Assembly: GCA_028278405.1 (NCBI GenBank)
Contig: JANQEK010000018.1
Span: 1 to 64,000, forward strand
From: Nitrospinaceae bacterium
GTDB lineage: Bacteria > Nitrospinota > Nitrospinia > Nitrospinales > Nitrospinaceae
DNA length: 64,000 nucleotides
Direction of reading: 5' to 3'
Each line of letters opens with the position of its first letter. Positions within the stretch are counted from its first letter, which is position 1. The notes beneath the pieces were generated by a model. That model saw only the letters and a list, made by a program, of their open reading frames with translations, searched no databases and was not told the origin of the DNA. A program made the translations under genes and the position numbers. Positions 40,893 through 48,599 of this stretch are shown one piece after another.

Positions 40893-42644
40893 ATGACTCA
40901 ATCGAACAGGACGTCTCTCAAACTCCGCTTGCTCTTCATTGCTCTTGTTACCTTTGGGAATGCGGCAGTATTTCCGTTATACTTGCATGCCCAGGTTTCG
41001 GTGCCTCCTGCAGGCGAGTCCGGCGTAGGGCAAAAGGCATTGGAGCAATCCCGCCCAGAATTCCAACCTCCCAAAGAAGAACTCCACCCTCTCTCTATTG
41101 AAGACAGCCGCTCCGTGGTTGACCCGGGAGCGGGTCCCAGGTTTGTTATTAAAAAAATCAAAGTCATCGGCAATACCCTGATTGATGACGCCTCCCTCGC
41201 TCCTGTTCTGGATGTGGGAGACGGAATGGAAGTAACTCTGGGTATCCTCCATCTCATTGCTGAAGAAATCACTTCCCTGTATGGAATGAGGGGATACATC
41301 CTGACTCGCGCCTATGTTCCCGAACAGGAAATTGAAAACGGAGTGGTGACTATTCAAGTGGTTGAGGGCAGGCTGGGCAAATTTGAAGTCAATGGTAATG
41401 AGAAATTTAAAACTGAGGATATCCAGAAACGGTTGCAGCCCTTGCAGGATGATCCGGCCCTCAAGGAAAGCACTCTTGAAAAATATCTCCTGGGGTTGAA
41501 CGCTATCCGGGGATTGAAAGTAAAAGCTATCCTGAAACCCGGCGAAGTATTCGGCACATCGGACCTGGCGCTACAGACCGAGGAATCCCGTACTTACCGC
41601 GTTGCTTTTGACGCGGATAACTTTGGTTCCCGCTTCACCGGCGAACAACGGTACGGCTTGACGGGAGAAACCGGAAGCCTGTTCGTGATGGGCGATCGTT
41701 TGGCCGTCCGCGGGGTCAAATCCGACGAAGACCAGGTTTTCATCAATCCATCCTTTTCAGTACCCATCGGTCCCTACGGCACGACTGCCACTTTGTCTTA
41801 CACGTTTACCGACTTCAATTTGGGGGGTAATCTAGTCGCATTGAACGCCGGCGGAAGGGCCAACATATTCACTATAGATTTGACCCATTCCCTGATCCGG
41901 ACCCGTAGTTCCGAGTTTCACCTGAGTTTGGGAGGGGAGATTCGTAATTTCGAAAACGGGTTGGCGGGAGCGCCTTCCAGTGATGACAAGCTTCGCGACA
42001 TCTATCTTGAGGCGGGGGGATTCTTCAAAGATTTTCTTCGCGCCCATTCCTTTTACAGCCTGCGTCTGCAGCACGGTTTCAGCGAAAGCGACGTCACCGA
42101 CCCGCTTAATTCCAGGTTTCAGGGACGAGGCGATGCCCTGGTCTCCAGCTTCGATTTCACCCGTTACCAGTCTGCTTACGTTGGAAAAACTTATCTGATC
42201 TTTAAGGCTAGAGGACAGGTTGTCTCCAAACGGGTTCTCTCTCCCGATCAGTTTGCGATAGGGGGGTTCGGGTCGGTCCGCGGCTACCCGCTGGCGGAAG
42301 CGGCAGGAGACAATGGGTACTTCATTTCCACAGAACTGGTTGTTCCTTTTCCCTTCAAAGTGCCAGTGATCAAAAACCCCCGTACGGTACAGTTGGACGA
42401 GATAATCTCCCTGTTCGCTTTTCTGGAGCACGGTCAGGTGTTTATCAAAAACCGGCAACCTGGAGAAAATGACCAGGATTTGAGCGGTGCGGGCCTGGGT
42501 CTACGGTTGAACATGCCTCCACTGGGGACCAATTATCCCGCCGTCAGCTTTGCGTTTGCCTATGGATTCCCCGTTTTCGGAGGACCGGACCCTTCGGATG
42601 GGTCCTCCAGCACCCTTTACCTCAATGGCTTGGTTTCCTTCTAG
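40893..42644 (+). CDS. TpsB, ShlB/FhaC-type two-partner secretion pore
   Basis: Outer-membrane Omp85-superfamily transporter of 583 residues. The signal peptide spans about 1-33. A POTRA domain follows at about 84-157 (FVIKKIKVIGNTLIDD), with a second POTRA-like part to about 235, then a 16-strand type beta barrel. The L6 motif is SVRGYPLAE, the family signature. It ends in the expected aromatic residue (GLVSF). It contains no cysteine. It would export the TpsA protein encoded at 43691. Confidence 0.93.
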   Translation: MTQSNRTSLKLRLLFIALVTFGNAAVFPLYLHAQVSVPPAGESGVGQKALEQSRPEFQPPKEELHPLSIEDSRSVVDPGAGPRFVIKKIKVIGNTLIDDASLAPVLDVGDGMEVTLGILHLIAEEITSLYGMRGYILTRAYVPEQEIENGVVTIQVVEGRLGKFEVNGNEKFKTEDIQKRLQPLQDDPALKESTLEKYLLGLNAIRGLKVKAILKPGEVFGTSDLALQTEESRTYRVAFDADNFGSRFTGEQRYGLTGETGSLFVMGDRLAVRGVKSDEDQVFINPSFSVPIGPYGTTATLSYTFTDFNLGGNLVALNAGGRANIFTIDLTHSLIRTRSSEFHLSLGGEIRNFENGLAGAPSSDDKLRDIYLEAGGFFKDFLRAHSFYSLRLQHGFSESDVTDPLNSRFQGRGDALVSSFDFTRYQSAYVGKTYLIFKARGQVVSKRVLSPDQFAIGGFGSVRGYPLAEAAGDNGYFISTELVVPFPFKVPVIKNPRTVQLDEIISLFAFLEHGQVFIKNRQPGENDQDLSGAGLGLRLNMPPLGTNYPAVSFAFAYGFPVFGGPDPSDGSSSTLYLNGLVSF

Positions 42645-42751
42645 TCCCGGTTTCGGGCCCTTTTGTAAATCTTTGTTCAAGTCCTTCCCTAATTTGCCCG
42701 AAATATCTAAAAACCTCTAAATTTTTATTGGCTCTACAGACCCAAATATCA

Positions 42752-42820
42752 ACCCCTTTTGGGGTATTTTGATAGATTTCCCATATTTATCGCCACTTTA
42801 TTTACATTTACGCCTATAAT
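42752..42820 (+). promoter_or_regulatory. Promoter of the fecR-tpsA-cyclase unit with ACCCC-N4-GGGGT palindrome
   Basis: Perfect -10 TATAAT at 42815-42820, 44 bp before the fecR ATG. Upstream, at 42752-42765, lies ACCCC-TTTT-GGGGT, centred near -68 from the predicted start. The same palindrome, ACCCC-AAAT-GGGGT, lies at 29679-29692, at a similar distance upstream of the candidate small RNA promoter. The position fits a class I activator site. The 220-bp stretch after tpsB holds nothing else clear. Confidence 0.5.
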
Positions 42821-42864
42821 GTTTCCATCAAGTCAATCAAATTGAAATCTGCAGGAGTAGTGGG

Positions 42865-43671
42865 ATGACCCATTTTTTTGGAAGAGGACTGGCTCTGCTG
42901 GCAGTAGTATTTCTGGTTTTTCCGGCAAATGCGTGGGCGGAGAAGAAGCCGGTGGGAAGAATTATCGCCATTATTGGAAATGCGGAATATACTCCCGGTG
43001 GCGAGGAATCGGTTGCCAGCGCCCGGCCCGGTGAGGTTGTTCCCGTCTCTTTGACCCCCTGGCAGAAGGTGCAGCCCAAGCAGGTGGTGTATGCCAGTGA
43101 CGAGTTTCGGACCGGCCGCAAGAGCCGACTGCGTATATTGTTCGAGGATTCCAGCCTGATGGCCCTGGGTCCCAATTCCAGGATGAAAATCTCGTCCTAT
43201 CTGTTTGATGCCAAGGAGAAGCTTCGGCAGGGCGTCATCAGTATCGGCCACGGCATTTCCATGTACATTGTCAATAAGGAGCAGAAGCATCCCAAGTCCC
43301 ATTTCAAAATTCTTTCTCCCACCGCGAATGTGGCGGCACGTGGCACTCAGGGATACCTGAGCGTATCGAAACTTAAGACTTTGGTTGCCAATCAAGCGGG
43401 TATTGTCCGGGCGCTCAATGCAGATCCCAGCGTCATTGGAGATGTGATGGTGGGACCGATGATGAAAACGGTCGTGGAAGAGGGCAAGCCTCCGACGGAA
43501 CCCGAAGCTCTGAGTGGTCCGGAACGGAAAATGATCCAGCAGGTGATTATGGGCTGGGTGGGTTCGCGTTACCGAGAGAAGCCCCGCAAGGGTTCGGATA
43601 TTAAAGAAGCCGTACAAGAAGAATACGATTTATTCGAAGAAGATTCGTCAGACCCCTGTACCTCGGGCTAA
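42865..43671 (+). CDS. FecR-domain periplasmic protein
   Basis: Exported protein of 268 residues: signal peptide about 1-25 (ANAWA), then a FecR domain at about 70-175 (ASDEFRTGRKSRLRILFEDSS, with ARGTQGYLSV). There is no membrane segment and no sigma factor gene nearby, so it is not a classical FecI-FecR pair. FecR-domain proteins next to secreted repeat proteins and CHASE2 cyclases occur in several phyla. Its only cysteine is C265 in the tail DPCTSG. It lies 19 bp before tpsA, preceded by AGGAG. Confidence 0.85.
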   Translation: MTHFFGRGLALLAVVFLVFPANAWAEKKPVGRIIAIIGNAEYTPGGEESVASARPGEVVPVSLTPWQKVQPKQVVYASDEFRTGRKSRLRILFEDSSLMALGPNSRMKISSYLFDAKEKLRQGVISIGHGISMYIVNKEQKHPKSHFKILSPTANVAARGTQGYLSVSKLKTLVANQAGIVRALNADPSVIGDVMVGPMMKTVVEEGKPPTEPEALSGPERKMIQQVIMGWVGSRYREKPRKGSDIKEAVQEEYDLFEEDSSDPCTSG

Positions 43672-43690
43672 GTCGGAATCGAGAGGAAAT

Positions 43691-45358
43691 ATGAGTATGT
43701 ACAAGACCGAATCGAAAGGAAATCGCAGGTTGTACCGGCTAGTTGTTGGCTTTGGGATAATCCTGTGGGTTATGACACCCGGATGGGTGATTGCTCTTCC
43801 CAAGGGCGGCGACATTGTTTCCGGAACGGGTAGTATTCAACAACCGTCCAGACAAAACCTGGTGATTGAACAGAAAAGCCAACATTTGATCACTAACTGG
43901 AAGAAATTCAGCATCGGCTCGGCGGAATCGGTTACCTTCAATCAACCCGGTCCCAGCGCGGTGGCGCTTAATCGGGTGATTGGTGTGAACCCCAGCATCA
44001 TTCTCGGAAAACTCTCAGCTAACGGTCAGGTATTTTTGAGCAACCCGTCCGGAGTCGTATTCGGAAAAAATGCCAAGGTCGATGTGCATGGTCTTTTGGC
44101 AACAACGCTCAACATCTCGAATGAAAATTTTCTAAGGGGCAATTATCAGTTTTCAGAAGGTAAGTACCGACCTTTAGCCGCAATCATTAATCTTGGAGAA
44201 ATCAATGCAGCACGCTATGTCGGCCTGGCTGCTCCGGTGGTGGTCAATACCGGTTCCATTGTGGTGGCAGATATGGGATCCGTCGCGCTGGCTTCTGGAA
44301 CAACGGCGACTTTGGATTTCAATGGTGACGGCCTGATTAATTTCGCAGTGTCCGATGATCGACCTTATAAAAAGAGACTCATCAAAGGCCGGATTCACAA
44401 CAGTGGGCTCATTCGTGCAAACGGTGGACAAGTTATGTTAACCGCCAGCTCTGCCGGACACGTGATTGGCAGCGTGGTCAATCACTCCGGCGTCATCGAA
44501 GCCCAAACCGTTCAGGCGAAAGACGGAAAAATCATATTATCCGGCGGAAGTCAGGGCAATGTTCAGATTTCCGGAACATTGGACGCTTCAAATGTGCTTG
44601 TCAAAGCCGATGAAGTAACTGTGGGCGCTCGCAAGTTCTCATGGGTCAATTATTACGATCGGGATCCTCGAAAAGTGGAAGCCAAGTCATTGTCGACCAA
44701 CAATGGAGACATCCATATTGTGGCCAATGATCTGAACATTAGAGGCGATCTGGACAGCGGCACGGGCGATGTTTCCTTTACTCTCGCGAATGGCCGCGAT
44801 CTGAATCTCGCACCCGGCAATCCCCGTACAGGGTTGGGAGGAGATGATCTCAGCCGCATTTATGCGGAGAACCTGGTACTCAAGACGAAAGGTGATATTA
44901 ACGTCGATGGTATTACCGAGAAACATACGGGTGGGATTAAAGACTCCGTAATCCTGAAGTCCACCGGCGGGGACATTAATTTTGAAGGTGAGGCTTCTTC
45001 TTTCCCGGCTTTAAAAGCGTCTGCGACCAACGATATTAACGTGATGACGAATGTCACGACCACTCAGGGCGATTTTATAGGGGTGGCAGACAGCGATGAC
45101 GACGGCAAGGGTGATTTCAATGTGGACCCGGGTGTGGTCATTGCTTCGGCACGGGATATTGATGTGAGTGCTCCCACGATCAATGCCGATAATGATGAGT
45201 CATTCGATGAAACCCGTGACTTGATTCTGAACGGTAAAGTGGAAAACGGCGATGATCTTCCTCCTGTCGCTTCCATTGAGACCGAAGCTATTCAACAAGG
45301 ATCTCTGGGTAGTTTCCTCACTGAATTTTTCGAGAACGGTGGTCCCAGCGGTTGTTGA
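43691..45358 (+). CDS. TpsA-type secreted protein with haemagglutinin secretion domain
   Basis: Exported beta-helix protein of 555 residues. An extended signal peptide (about 1-36) precedes the filamentous-haemagglutinin N-terminal secretion domain (about 37-280). This holds DIVSGTGSIQQ, NQPGPSAVALNRV and the NPSGVVFG motif typical of TpsA. The rest is short beta-helix repeats with Asp-rich turns, such as DFNGDG and DSDDDGKGD, that may bind calcium. It is short for a TpsA adhesin. Its only cysteine is the final residue (GGPSGC). The cognate pore is probably TpsB at 40893. Confidence 0.88.
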   Translation: MSMYKTESKGNRRLYRLVVGFGIILWVMTPGWVIALPKGGDIVSGTGSIQQPSRQNLVIEQKSQHLITNWKKFSIGSAESVTFNQPGPSAVALNRVIGVNPSIILGKLSANGQVFLSNPSGVVFGKNAKVDVHGLLATTLNISNENFLRGNYQFSEGKYRPLAAIINLGEINAARYVGLAAPVVVNTGSIVVADMGSVALASGTTATLDFNGDGLINFAVSDDRPYKKRLIKGRIHNSGLIRANGGQVMLTASSAGHVIGSVVNHSGVIEAQTVQAKDGKIILSGGSQGNVQISGTLDASNVLVKADEVTVGARKFSWVNYYDRDPRKVEAKSLSTNNGDIHIVANDLNIRGDLDSGTGDVSFTLANGRDLNLAPGNPRTGLGGDDLSRIYAENLVLKTKGDINVDGITEKHTGGIKDSVILKSTGGDINFEGEASSFPALKASATNDINVMTNVTTTQGDFIGVADSDDDGKGDFNVDPGVVIASARDIDVSAPTINADNDESFDETRDLILNGKVENGDDLPPVASIETEAIQQGSLGSFLTEFFENGGPSGC

Positions 45359-45411
45359 TACAAGAGTATCCAATTCCTTTGCCGGGTTCTTTCCTGTGTT
45401 AAAATCTTTAC

Positions 45412-47643
45412 ATGAAAATTCGCTGGCGGAATGCCTTTACAGTATCCATCCTGATCACTCTGCTTTCCCTTTACATTTATTCCCTCAACCTTTCTTTTTT
45501 TAAACTTCTCGAGCTTAAAGCGTACGATTTTAAAATGTCCCTGCGAGGGTCGCGCCCGATTTCCGACCAGGTGGTGATCGTTGCAATAGACGAGCCCAGT
45601 TTGAAGCGATTGGGACGTTGGCCCTGGCCGCGCACCCGGTTGGCTCAATTGGTCGATAAATTATCGGAGTCCGGTGCGGCGGTGATCGGTTTCGACTTTT
45701 TGTTTCCCGAAAGAGAGGCTCATGTTTCCCTCGACAAAGTCAAAGACAATATTGCGAAAAGAAACCTGACTGGCATGAATCGGGAGAAATTGATGACTTG
45801 GTTGAAGGAAGTGGGCGATTCGGATTTCCGGCTCGCCGAGTCGATTCGCCGGTCGAAACGAACCGTACTGGGCTATTTCGTGTATGCGACTGCGGAGCAG
45901 GCAGCAGAGGATTCCGCCGCAATGATGGGGCAAAAGGAGTTTCAACTACTGGATTTCTCCCAGTATTCCATGGTCCAGTCCAGCGACCAATCGATCACTC
46001 CCGATTTCCTGCAACCCATTTATGCCGTAGGTCTCAGCCTCCCTTCTTTGATGGATGCCGCCAACAGCGCCGGTTACGTTTCATTTGTGCCGGAGCGCGA
46101 CGGGGTCATCCGCTTCATGCCCATGGTGCGGGTTCACAAGGAGGCGGCCTTTCCTCCATTCAGCCTGCAAATGTTGCGGGAAGCGACTCAGTTGAGTTCT
46201 GTCGTCCGGATTTATCCTCACCGGGTGGGAGAAGTTCGATTGGGGGATTCTCCAATCCCAGTAACCGAGAACGGGGATTTGCTGGTGAATTATTATGGAC
46301 CCATGCAGACGTTCACCTATCTGTCCGCTTCCAATGTACTGGATGGAACGGTAAAACCCATACAACTGAAAAATAAAATCGTCCTGATCGGTGGTACGGC
46401 TGCTGCTCTTCACGACCTGCACACCACACCTTATGGGCCTCTTTATCCTGGGGTCGAGGTGCATGCCAATGTCATCGAAAACATCATTCAGCAGGATTTT
46501 CTTGAACTTCCCCCATGGGTCCCGCTTCTGGATGTGGCAATAATTATCGTGACCGGAATTTTGTTGGGTCTGGTGGCTCTTTATTTCAAAGCCGTCGGTA
46601 CTGCAGTCTTACTGGTGGTTGGAGTGGCAGGGTACCTGTTTTTCGATTACATGTTGTTCACCCAGCAGGGCTTGTGGGTTCATACGGTGTTTCCGGTATT
46701 TTCCCAGTTCCTGGTTTACTTCGGAATCACTTTGTATCGTTTCACCTTTGAAGAAAAAGAAAAACGGTTTATCAAGAGCGCATTCAGCCAGTACCTCGCA
46801 CCGGCGGTGGTGGAGCAGCTGGTGGAAAATCCCAAACTGTTGAATCTGGGTGGAGAGGATAAGGTACTAACGGCTTTTTTCTCAGATGTGGCGGGCTTCT
46901 CTTCTATTTCAGAGCAGTTGACCGCACACGAATTAGTCATTTTATTGAATGAATATTTAACGGAGATGACCGATATTGTCATGCAATACGAAGGCACGGT
47001 CGACAAGTTTGAAGGCGACGCCATCATTGCTTTTTTTGGTGCACCCATCGATTTTAAAGATCATGCGACCCGGACCTGCTACGCAGCGCTGGATATGCAG
47101 AAGCGATTGGCCCAGTTGCGGAAAATCTGGAAAAAGAAAGGCCGGCACGAGTTGTTCATGCGTATCGGAATCAATACCGGAGAAGTGACGGTCGGAAACA
47201 TGGGCTCCGAAAACCGGTTTGATTACACCATGATCGGCGACCCCGTGAACGTAGCTGCACGGCTGGAGGGCGCCAACAAGCAATACCATACGCACACCAT
47301 GCTGAGCGAATTTACTTACGAGTTGGCAAAGAATGACATTGAAGCGCGTGAGCTGGACTCCATCCGTGTAGTCGGTAAGAAAGAGCCGATCAAGATTTAC
47401 GAATTGCTCGGACGCAAGGGAGAGATGGAAGATCATATCCGACTCATCCTTCCTCATTTTCAGGAAGGTCTCGAGCATTATAAAAACCAGCGGTGGGAGG
47501 AGGGCATCACCTGCTTTGAAAGCGCACTGAATTTGTACGAAGATGACGGCCCTTCGTTGACTTATTTTGAACGATGTATCACGTTTCAGTATCACCCGCC
47601 ACCCCCGGATTGGGACGGTGTTTTTGCCATGCGGACCAAATAG
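45412..47643 (+). CDS. CHASE2-domain adenylate cyclase
   Basis: Membrane sensor enzyme of 743 residues. One N-terminal helix leads to a periplasmic CHASE2 domain (about 35-330). Three helices follow (about 350-440), then a class III cyclase domain (about 470-650). The metal site is in FFSDVAGFSS and the second Asp in FEGDAIIAFFG. The Lys of VDKFEGDA and the Asp of FDYTMIGDP are the pair that selects ATP over GTP, so cAMP is the likely product. A TPR-like tail ends the protein. It starts 53 bp after tpsA. Confidence 0.92.
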   Translation: MKIRWRNAFTVSILITLLSLYIYSLNLSFFKLLELKAYDFKMSLRGSRPISDQVVIVAIDEPSLKRLGRWPWPRTRLAQLVDKLSESGAAVIGFDFLFPEREAHVSLDKVKDNIAKRNLTGMNREKLMTWLKEVGDSDFRLAESIRRSKRTVLGYFVYATAEQAAEDSAAMMGQKEFQLLDFSQYSMVQSSDQSITPDFLQPIYAVGLSLPSLMDAANSAGYVSFVPERDGVIRFMPMVRVHKEAAFPPFSLQMLREATQLSSVVRIYPHRVGEVRLGDSPIPVTENGDLLVNYYGPMQTFTYLSASNVLDGTVKPIQLKNKIVLIGGTAAALHDLHTTPYGPLYPGVEVHANVIENIIQQDFLELPPWVPLLDVAIIIVTGILLGLVALYFKAVGTAVLLVVGVAGYLFFDYMLFTQQGLWVHTVFPVFSQFLVYFGITLYRFTFEEKEKRFIKSAFSQYLAPAVVEQLVENPKLLNLGGEDKVLTAFFSDVAGFSSISEQLTAHELVILLNEYLTEMTDIVMQYEGTVDKFEGDAIIAFFGAPIDFKDHATRTCYAALDMQKRLAQLRKIWKKKGRHELFMRIGINTGEVTVGNMGSENRFDYTMIGDPVNVAARLEGANKQYHTHTMLSEFTYELAKNDIEARELDSIRVVGKKEPIKIYELLGRKGEMEDHIRLILPHFQEGLEHYKNQRWEEGITCFESALNLYEDDGPSLTYFERCITFQYHPPPPDWDGVFAMRTK

Positions 47644-47658
47644 AAAGGAAGTTTGGCT

Positions 47659-48024
47659 GTGATTTTTGGGGAGTATCTGGTAGAGCAGAGCATTATCCGG
47701 CAGGAAGACTTGGATCGGGCTTTGGAAATCCAAAAAACCGATCGGGTACCGCTCGGACAATTGGCAATGCAAAAAGGATTGATCAACAACAAACAACTGT
47801 TCCGGATTCTGTCCCGCCAGCGGAAACCTGACGAAAAAAGCAAAAGCTTCGGTAAACTGGCGGTGGAAATGGAATACCTGGATCAGGGGCAAGTGGAGAC
47901 GTTGTTGGAGCGGCAAACACACACCAACCGTCTGCTTGGGGAGATTCTGGTATCCCAGGGCCTCGTTTCCCAGATGGAGTTGATCAAGGCTTTGAAGAAA
48001 TTCAGGTCTCAAGACAAGAAATAA
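47659..48024 (+). CDS. Stand-alone MshEN / GspE-N-like repeat protein
   Basis: A 121-residue helical protein made of four similar units at about 3-25, 32-54, 64-86 and 93-115. Each follows (F/L)G-x2-(L/I)-(A/V/L)...L-x2-(A/I/L)-L-x2-Q. This matches the tandem motif of MshEN, the N-terminal domain of type II/IV secretion ATPases that binds cyclic di-GMP. The arginine usually before LG is missing in all four. No ATPase is attached. The GTG at 47659 sits 7 bases after AAGGAAG; a TTG at 47653 is too close to that site. It lies 15 bp after the cyclase gene. Confidence 0.75.
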   Translation: MIFGEYLVEQSIIRQEDLDRALEIQKTDRVPLGQLAMQKGLINNKQLFRILSRQRKPDEKSKSFGKLAVEMEYLDQGQVETLLERQTHTNRLLGEILVSQGLVSQMELIKALKKFRSQDKK

Positions 48025-48122: not shown

Positions 48123-48599
48123 TTGAAAAACAAAAAAGAGGTAGGCAAAGCCCTGGGTCGCGTTCCCAGCGGCCTTTTTGTCGTTACGGCAAAACATAAA
48201 GATTCAGAAGACGCGGTGTTGGCCAGTTGGGTCAACCAATGTTCGTTCGATCCTCCTGCGCTGACCGTGGCGCTCGGAGTAGCCCGACAGGCGCGGCTCC
48301 TTGTCGAAGCGTCCCAGGCATTTATTGTGAATGTATTGGGTAAGGAATCCAACGACCTGATGAAACATTTTTTCAAAGCTCCCGAGCCCGGCGTTTCGGT
48401 GTTCGATGGGTTAAAGGTGAGCAAGGGATTTCACGATATCAAAGTGCTGAATGATGCCATCGCTTATGTGGAATGCGAATTGCGTGAACAGACGGCTTTC
48501 GGAGATCATCTGGTGTACGTAGGAGAAATTGTCAGCGGTAAAATGTTGAAGGGGGGGGATCCCTACTTTCATGTTCGGGACAATGGATTCAATTACTGA
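48123..48599 (+). CDS. Flavin reductase-like FMN-binding protein
   Basis: Split-barrel flavoprotein of 158 residues: ALGRVPSGLFVVTAKH and ASWVNQCSFDPPALTVAL are the FMN-binding signature of flavin reductase-like proteins. It ends YFHVRDNGFNY. The start is TTG, chosen because GAGGAGAGG lies 4-12 bases upstream and the family N-terminus begins here. The electron partner is unknown. Convergent with the minus-strand operon ending at 48612. Confidence 0.88.
   Translation: MKNKKEVGKALGRVPSGLFVVTAKHKDSEDAVLASWVNQCSFDPPALTVALGVARQARLLVEASQAFIVNVLGKESNDLMKHFFKAPEPGVSVFDGLKVSKGFHDIKVLNDAIAYVECELREQTAFGDHLVYVGEIVSGKMLKGGDPYFHVRDNGFNY

What the first reader, a model, noticed from the sequence alone, without database searches (positions are those of the whole stretch)
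40893..48024. Two-partner secretion locus fused to cAMP and MshEN-type signalling genes
Five collinear genes: TpsB pore, FecR-domain protein, short TpsA exoprotein, CHASE2-adenylate cyclase and a stand-alone MshEN-like repeat protein, all on one strand with tight spacing (19, 53 and 15 bp after fecR, tpsA and the cyclase). Sequence shows the domains. Established: TpsB exports TpsA, FecR proteins signal across envelopes, CHASE2 is a periplasmic sensor, and MshEN binds cyclic di-GMP. Inference: export or surface state of TpsA is sensed in the periplasm through FecR and CHASE2 and converted to cAMP, with the MshEN-like protein as a cytoplasmic reader. I know of FecR-CHASE2 neighbourhoods but not of this five-gene unit.
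Basis: partly seen in the sequence, partly recalled or inferred. Interest (0 to 1): 0.65.

Follow-up and report, generated by a model that had tools for sequence, protein, structure and literature searches.

The report
Cysteine-tailed FecR–TpsA surface-sensing operon
A Nitrospinota bacterium has a conserved operon that exports a surface protein, pairs it with a periplasmic FecR protein through what looks like a matching pair of tail cysteines, and sits next to a CHASE2 cAMP-making enzyme, which suggests a new way of reading the state of an exported protein from inside the cell.

Summary
The five genes are real and correctly placed: TpsB, FecR, TpsA, CHASE2–adenylate cyclase and a tandem MshEN protein. 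The genome is Nitrospinota. In 77 Nitrospinota genomes, FecR lies next to TPS 24 times (0.4 expected), TPS next to CHASE2 12 times (0.8 expected) and FecR next to CHASE2 47 times (0.9 expected). The unit is modular: FecR–TpsA occurs without the cyclase, cyclase–MshEN without tps, and tps–cyclase without MshEN.

The new finding is in the tails. Every TPS-linked FecR seen (26/26) carries a Cys 2–7 residues from its C-terminus. Every readable TpsA C-terminus of these operons (24/24) ends in Cys. None of 31 full-length TpsA without FecR does. In the window these are the only cysteines in the three envelope-exported proteins.

Best explanation: FecR is a periplasmic partner that disulfide-locks the TpsA tail, a split version of the HMW1/HxuA/CdrA cysteine anchor; CHASE2 reads FecR and makes cAMP. 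The genome's cNMP-binding proteins include three cNMP–GGDEF–EAL enzymes and no Crp regulator, so cAMP probably feeds c-di-GMP and MshEN. Disulfide and signal flow are inferred, not shown.

The parts
40893..42644 (+). TpsB (ShlB/FhaC-type Omp85 transporter, POTRA_2 + barrel), 583 aa, no Cys
42752..42765 (.). palindrome ACCCCTTTTGGGGT in the tpsB-fecR gap, largely conserved in six loci of the genus (terminator- or operator-like)
42815..42820 (+). TATAAT in a conserved TTTATTTACATTTACGC-TATAATG block, putative promoter of fecR-tpsA-cyclase-MshEN
   Evidence: conservation; a promoter is inferred, the simple scan lists none here
42865..43671 (+). periplasmic FecR-domain protein, 268 aa, signal peptide, no cytoplasmic anti-sigma part
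   Evidence: model matches FecR-type cell-surface-signalling domains 4m0n and 6ovk
43657..43659 (+). codon of Cys265, the only Cys of FecR, 4th from the C-terminus, in a disordered tail (232-268)
43691..45358 (+). TpsA exoprotein, 555 aa: TPS domain 48-292, beta-solenoid about 334-518, disordered tail
45290..45355 (+). TpsA C-terminal tail IQQGSLGSFLTEFFENGGPSGC ending in the only Cys (Cys555, codon 45353-45355)
   Evidence: same kind of tail in 24/24 TpsA C-termini of FecR operons
45412..47643 (+). CHASE2-class III adenylate cyclase, 743 aa (CHASE2 residues 19-383, cyclase 486-665)
47653..48024 (+). tandem MshEN protein, two 53-residue units (residues 5-57 and 66-118); motif-start Arg absent, Gln and hydrophobics mostly kept
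48123..48599 (+). flavin reductase-like protein, conserved next gene after MshEN in several families; probably context, not part of the mechanism

Best explanation
This is a type Vb (two-partner) secretion operon whose exoprotein is coupled to a periplasmic FecR partner and, in many loci, to a CHASE2 cAMP sensor. Shown: gene order, its conservation, the domain content and the co-conserved single cysteines at the two C-termini. Inferred: TpsB exports TpsA from the N-terminus, and its C-terminal motif stays in the periplasm. Its last residue, Cys555, forms a disulfide with FecR Cys265. FecR then acts as the plug that HMW1 and HxuA make with an intramolecular disulfide loop, and it reports whether TpsA is held, cut off or pulled. 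The FecR domain contacts the periplasmic CHASE2 domain and so tunes the cyclase. cAMP is read by cNMP-binding proteins, of which three carry GGDEF-EAL. The resulting c-di-GMP change may be read by the MshEN protein encoded in the same operon.
For: Tails: TPS-linked FecR 26/26 with a Cys 2-7 residues from the end, the only Cys beyond the first ~40 residues in 25 of 26. TpsA C-termini 24/24 with Cys in the last two residues, mostly behind a shared motif, in proteins of 122 to 3785 aa. TpsA without FecR 0/31. FecR proteins not linked to TPS, inside and outside the phylum, lack a single terminal Cys. In the window TpsB has 0 Cys, FecR 1, TpsA 1, and CHASE2-cyclase Cys lie only at 556, 701 and 722, in or after the cytoplasmic cyclase domain. 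Clustering. FecR model fits the PupR-type cell-surface-signalling fold, tail disordered. TpsA tail is a disordered linker with a short helix. DsbA-family proteins are in the genome. cNMP-GGDEF-EAL proteins are present, one divergent from a CHASE2 cyclase, and no Crp-type regulator was found.
Against: FecR-linked TpsA fall essentially in one clade of the TPS tree. Only two independent contrasts exist, both concordant, so the 19/19 versus 0/31 split is not 50 independent events. No disulfide, contact or retention has been measured. Each Cys could make homodimers or meet another partner. G022 keeps the FecR-TpsA pair without any CHASE2 match in the genome, so cyclase coupling is optional. MshEN is absent from several loci, and its motif-start arginines are lost. 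VKOR was not found and DsbB was not searched.
Confidence: 0.45

Rival explanations
1. One reading: FecR and CHASE2 sense TpsA export or surface state non-covalently, cAMP is the output and the MshEN protein is the direct cytoplasmic reader in one fixed five-gene circuit.
For: Tight collinearity in the genus and full units in G000, G014, G018, G019 and G036; FecR-CHASE2 clustering.
Against: Modules occur apart (L040, L060-L062, L037, L073). The co-conserved tail cysteines are unexplained. MshEN is described as specific for c-di-GMP (PMC5013675), so it is unlikely to read the cyclase product directly.
Confidence: 0.15
2. FecR and TpsA only form a cysteine anchor (retention plug); the CHASE2 cyclase is a neighbouring, separately acting sensor that regulates the same adhesion lifestyle, without direct contact.
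For: FecR-TpsA with Cys tails exist without CHASE2, e.g. G022 has no CHASE2 match at all; CHASE2-MshEN exists without tps (L040).
Against: FecR-CHASE2 adjacency is very strong in the phylum and also seen outside it; 12 of 12 TPS-CHASE2 pairs are same strand; in G020 TpsB, the TpsA passenger and the cyclase are all missing from the locus.
Confidence: 0.2
3. The tail cysteines make homodimers (TpsA-TpsA and FecR-FecR) or attach each protein to another envelope component; co-conservation reflects one inherited operon type.
For: Essentially a single clade on the TPS tree; a lone Cys can dimerise.
Against: Both tails are kept together over large divergence in passenger length and FecR linker; in L136 both FecR and the TpsA Cys are absent; FecR proteins outside TPS operons do not keep the Cys.
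Confidence: 0.15
4. Ordinary operon of a TPS adhesin plus generic signalling genes with no mechanistic link; conservation reflects synteny of a stable SUF / radical SAM / flavin reductase neighbourhood.
For: The flanks are syntenic across families.
Against: TPS-CHASE2 and FecR-TPS pairs also occur outside that neighbourhood (L036, L037, L060-L062, L071, L072, L114, L118); tail conservation is position-specific.
Confidence: 0.05

Closest known systems
HMW1/HxuA-type cell-anchored two-partner secretion (type Vb)
   Same: TpsA kept at the cell by a C-terminal periplasmic disulfide element in the TpsB pore (PMC5422565)
   Different: There the disulfide closes a loop inside TpsA; here TpsA has one terminal Cys and the possible partner Cys is at the end of a separate FecR protein
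CdrA-CdrB with LapG/LapD (Pseudomonas aeruginosa)
   Same: TPS adhesin with a proposed cysteine hook and control by c-di-GMP (PMC11898600, PMC4694147)
   Different: Control there is by LapG proteolysis; here no protease is in the operon and the partner is FecR plus a CHASE2 cyclase
FecR/PupR cell-surface signalling, including PUMA3 VreA-VreI-VreR
   Same: FecR-type periplasmic signalling domain fold (6ovk, 4m0n); PUMA3 links a sigma-factor regulator of this kind with a TPS system (PMC2729926)
   Different: No ECF sigma factor, no TonB-dependent receptor and no cytoplasmic anti-sigma part; output is a cyclase
FecR plus CHASE2 sensor pairs (BiofilmReg operon of Burkholderia; CHASE2 cyclases such as CyaD1 of Sinorhizobium)
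   Same: FecR-domain periplasmic protein encoded next to a CHASE2 sensor (PMC5192318); CHASE2 cyclase making cAMP (PMC5498481)
   Different: Those have no TPS exoprotein in the unit; BiofilmReg uses a histidine kinase output

Membership tests
Two-partner secretion (type Vb) | TpsA with TPS domain next to a POTRA/ShlB-type TpsB | tested here: met
HMW1/HxuA-type disulfide-anchored TpsA | two C-terminal cysteines inside TpsA forming a loop | tested here: not met
   one Cys only, last residue, in the window TpsA
HMW1/HxuA-type disulfide-anchored TpsA | exoprotein stays attached to the cell | not testable with these tools
   needs fractionation
FecR-type cell-surface signalling regulator | FecR periplasmic domain fold | tested here: met
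FecR-type cell-surface signalling regulator | cytoplasmic anti-sigma segment with cognate ECF sigma factor next to it | tested here: not met
   N-terminus is a signal peptide; no sigma factor gene among the annotated neighbours
CHASE2 adenylate cyclase | CHASE2 domain plus class III cyclase with metal-binding Asp, Lys and Asn/Arg residues | tested here: met
   D492, D536, K532, N613, R617 invariant in 17 sequences; cAMP specificity inferred, best solved relative is CyaB 3r5g
MshEN c-di-GMP receptor | family profile match over the 53-residue domain | tested here: met
   NF053729 87.8 bits against cut-off 38, two stretches
MshEN c-di-GMP receptor | RLGxx...LxxxLxxQ motif including Arg | tested here: inconclusive
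   Arg absent at the motif starts, Gly/Leu/Gln mostly kept; PMC5013675 reports up to fivefold loss for Arg9/Asp12/Gln32 changes and over tenfold for hydrophobic ones
Pycsar anti-phage cyclase | PycC cyclase with a Pycsar effector | tested here: not met
   only the generic cyclase domain matches; no Pycsar effector next door

The most novel reading that the evidence does not exclude
The exported TpsA works as a covalently tethered antenna. Its C-terminal Cys is bound to periplasmic FecR, which directly controls a CHASE2 cyclase, so loss of or tension on a surface protein is turned into cAMP and then c-di-GMP. This would be a new class of trans-envelope signalling with a type Vb exoprotein as receptor.
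Probability: 0.27. Interest if true: 0.82.

Novelty: new variant of a known kind. Interest (0 to 1): 0.62.

Why it matters
How cells know whether a secreted adhesin is in place is poorly understood, and what CHASE2, a widespread periplasmic sensor domain, recognises is unknown (PMC5192318 states this). If FecR is the CHASE2 partner and is itself locked to an exoprotein tail, both questions become testable with two cysteine substitutions and a cAMP assay. Nitrospinota include abundant marine nitrite oxidisers (own knowledge), and the library searched holds no paper naming both Nitrospina and two-partner secretion.

Tried and rejected
Homology of the unit on plasmids: FecR gave no match, and TpsA matched over at most 68% of its length, mainly the TPS domain. 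An Ensifer plasmid has FecR-TPR divergent from a CHASE2 cyclase with a TPS pair about 15 kb away, a resemblance only. Phages: no TpsA match. Anti-phage Pycsar: rejected, cyclase domain only.

Search for Cys-tailed FecR-TPS outside Nitrospinota: 214 genomes of other phyla, 98 of one phylum (empty) and 247 of a larger unnamed phylum. None of the FecR relatives read had a single terminal Cys, and no TPS gene lay in the short flanks held (about 1.5 kb). Only the best-hit loci were read, so absence elsewhere is not proven. The pattern scan of GTDB contigs with the FecR alignment returned 24 loci, all mapping to Nitrospinota genomes or titled as such apart from two MAGs labelled Nitrospirae/Nitrospirota that are the same records as G014 and G020; its reach is limited.

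AlphaFold of TpsA with 9 sequences is weak (pLDDT 57), so only the solenoid 334-518 and the disordered tail are used. VKOR not found. No complex of FecR with TpsA or CHASE2 could be modelled, since the tool folds single chains only.

Full report
1. What is there. The window holds five collinear + strand genes at the stated coordinates: TpsB, a secreted FecR-domain protein, TpsA, a CHASE2-class III cyclase and a tandem MshEN protein. A flavin reductase-like gene follows 98 bp later. That gap is conserved in six loci of the genus, with a CCCCTTTTGGGG palindrome and a TATAAT block upstream of fecR. In other families tpsB and fecR nearly touch. So in this genus four genes probably form one transcript with their own promoter (inference).

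2. Where it is from. Relatives fetched with names are Nitrospinota (Nitrospinaceae, Nitrospina). The genome has 3.16 Mb and three CHASE2 cyclases.

3. Conservation. Over 77 Nitrospinota genomes I counted co-located pairs against random placement. FecR-TPS: 24 within 2.5 kb, all same strand, 0.4 expected. TPS-CHASE2: 12 within 6 kb, all same strand, 0.8 expected. FecR-CHASE2: 47 within 5 kb, only 12 same strand, 0.9 expected. Expectation uses a mean genome size and ignores contig breaks and relatedness. Full TpsB-FecR-TpsA-CHASE2-MshEN units occur in the genus and in G036 of another family; G037 and G038 show the TpsA tail directly upstream of the cyclase and MshEN.

4. Modularity. G010-G012 and G005 have TpsB-FecR-TpsA-CHASE2 with MshEN elsewhere or absent. 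G009 has CHASE2-MshEN-flavin reductase without tps. G009, G026 and G022 have FecR-TpsA without CHASE2 in the stretch held, and G022 has no CHASE2 match in its genome. FecR-CHASE2 pairs without TPS are common, also outside the phylum (L202, L230, L231, L233; Ensifer plasmid). The pairs are the units; the five-gene set is an assembly of them.

5. The tails. All FecR proteins next to TPS carry a Cys 2-7 residues from the C-terminus: 25 of 25 in the linked list, plus L071:17153-18250, which lies 501 bp upstream of the TpsA in L125, so 26 of 26. It is the only Cys beyond the first ~40 residues in 25 of 26 (exception L111). The tail between the FecR domain and the Cys is otherwise variable in length and sequence. 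All 24 TpsA C-termini of these operons that could be read have Cys as last or second-last residue, mostly behind a G[ST]xxSFLxxF-like motif, in proteins of 122 to 3785 aa. Of full-length TpsA genes on the tree, 19 of 19 with FecR and 0 of 31 without FecR have it. FecR proteins not next to TPS have no single terminal Cys; two have a pair near the end (L005, L166), and one outside the phylum (L229) has Cys 32 and 5 from its end. In the window TpsB has no Cys, FecR has Cys265 of 268, TpsA has Cys555 of 555, and the cyclase's three cysteines lie in or after its cytoplasmic catalytic domain.

6. Caution. On the TPS tree the FecR-linked TpsA are essentially one clade. The tree gives only two independent contrasts, both concordant, one of them L136, which lacks both FecR and Cys. 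The Fisher value (3e-14) therefore overstates independence. What speaks for function is retention of the Cys at the very end despite large changes in both proteins.

7. Structure. The FecR model (pLDDT 75) matches the periplasmic signalling domains of a Parabacteroides anti-sigma protein (4m0n) and PupR (6ovk), E about 1e-7; its last 37 residues are disordered. The TpsA model is weak overall but has a confident solenoid (334-518) and a disordered tail with a short helix before the Cys.

8. Mechanism. Known type Vb adhesins HMW1 and HxuA are held by a disulfide-closed C-terminal loop in the TpsB pore (PMC5422565), and CdrA by a proposed cysteine hook (PMC11898600). I propose that here the hook is split: TpsA brings one Cys and FecR the other. 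FecR also has the fold of a periplasmic signalling domain and is a frequent neighbour of CHASE2, so it is a natural link from TpsA to the cyclase. All contacts are inferred.

9. Output. Catalytic residues D492, D536, K532, N613 and R617 are invariant in 17 homologues (their roles from established knowledge of class III cyclases). The genome has 11 cNMP-binding domain hits: three cNMP-PAS-GGDEF-EAL proteins, a double-cNMP HATPase protein, a metallo-beta-lactamase/cNMP protein and four stand-alone domains, with no Crp-type regulator among them. One cNMP-PAS-GGDEF-EAL gene lies divergently next to the C20 CHASE2 cyclase. So cAMP probably changes c-di-GMP, which would give a role to an MshEN protein in a cAMP operon. 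The MshEN motifs lack the Arg that stacks on guanine; PMC5013675 reports at most fivefold loss for that residue and more than tenfold for the hydrophobic ones, which are mostly kept.

10. A natural deletion. In G020 the radical SAM gene is followed by fecR with no tpsB, tpsA is an in-frame 122 aa remnant that keeps signal region and Cys tail, and the cyclase is missing, while MshEN and flavin reductase remain. The genome is a 70% complete MAG and the region spans two contigs, so this is suggestive only.

11. Literature. No held paper joins CHASE2, FecR and two-partner secretion, and none joins Nitrospina and two-partner secretion. FecR with CHASE2 is described for Burkholderia (PMC5192318); a FecR-like regulator with a TPS system for PUMA3 (PMC2729926). 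The library is open-access only, so this is not proof of absence.

12. Verdict. Observation confirmed, interpretation partly supported, new variant of a known kind, with one specific and cheaply testable new idea: an intermolecular FecR-TpsA disulfide.

Noticed in passing
L005:6538-13149 (G000 contig C20): A third CHASE2 cyclase of the same genome lies divergently next to a cNMP-PAS-GGDEF-EAL gene, followed by a FecR protein with two Cys near its C-terminus: a possible direct cAMP to c-di-GMP circuit.
   Followed up: partly
L004:6264-12600 (G000 contig C34): A close paralogue of the window's cyclase (68-80% identical by domain) is divergent from a 1135 aa FecR-TPR-outer membrane barrel-like fusion.
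   Followed up: partly
L039:2-1717 and L088:2005-3722 (G020): Natural deletion: tpsB and cyclase missing, TpsA reduced to signal region plus Cys tail (122 aa), FecR and MshEN kept; could be a MAG artefact.
   Followed up: partly
L118:5068-16645 and L071:1718-8601 (G009): Tandem tpsA genes behind one fecR; both copies end in Cys.
   Followed up: yes
window:42645-42864: Conserved 220 bp gap between tpsB and fecR with a TATAAT block and a CCCCTTTTGGGG palindrome in the genus members compared; in other genera the genes nearly touch.
   Followed up: partly
window:48875-51442 (- strand): Convergent neighbour of 855 aa combining transglutaminase-like, TPR and sulfatase-modifying-factor (FGE) domains, syntenic with the unit in several families.
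   Followed up: no
window:39611-40669: AmmeMemoRadiSam-type radical SAM gene next to SUF genes, conserved upstream neighbour of the unit in several genera.
   Followed up: no
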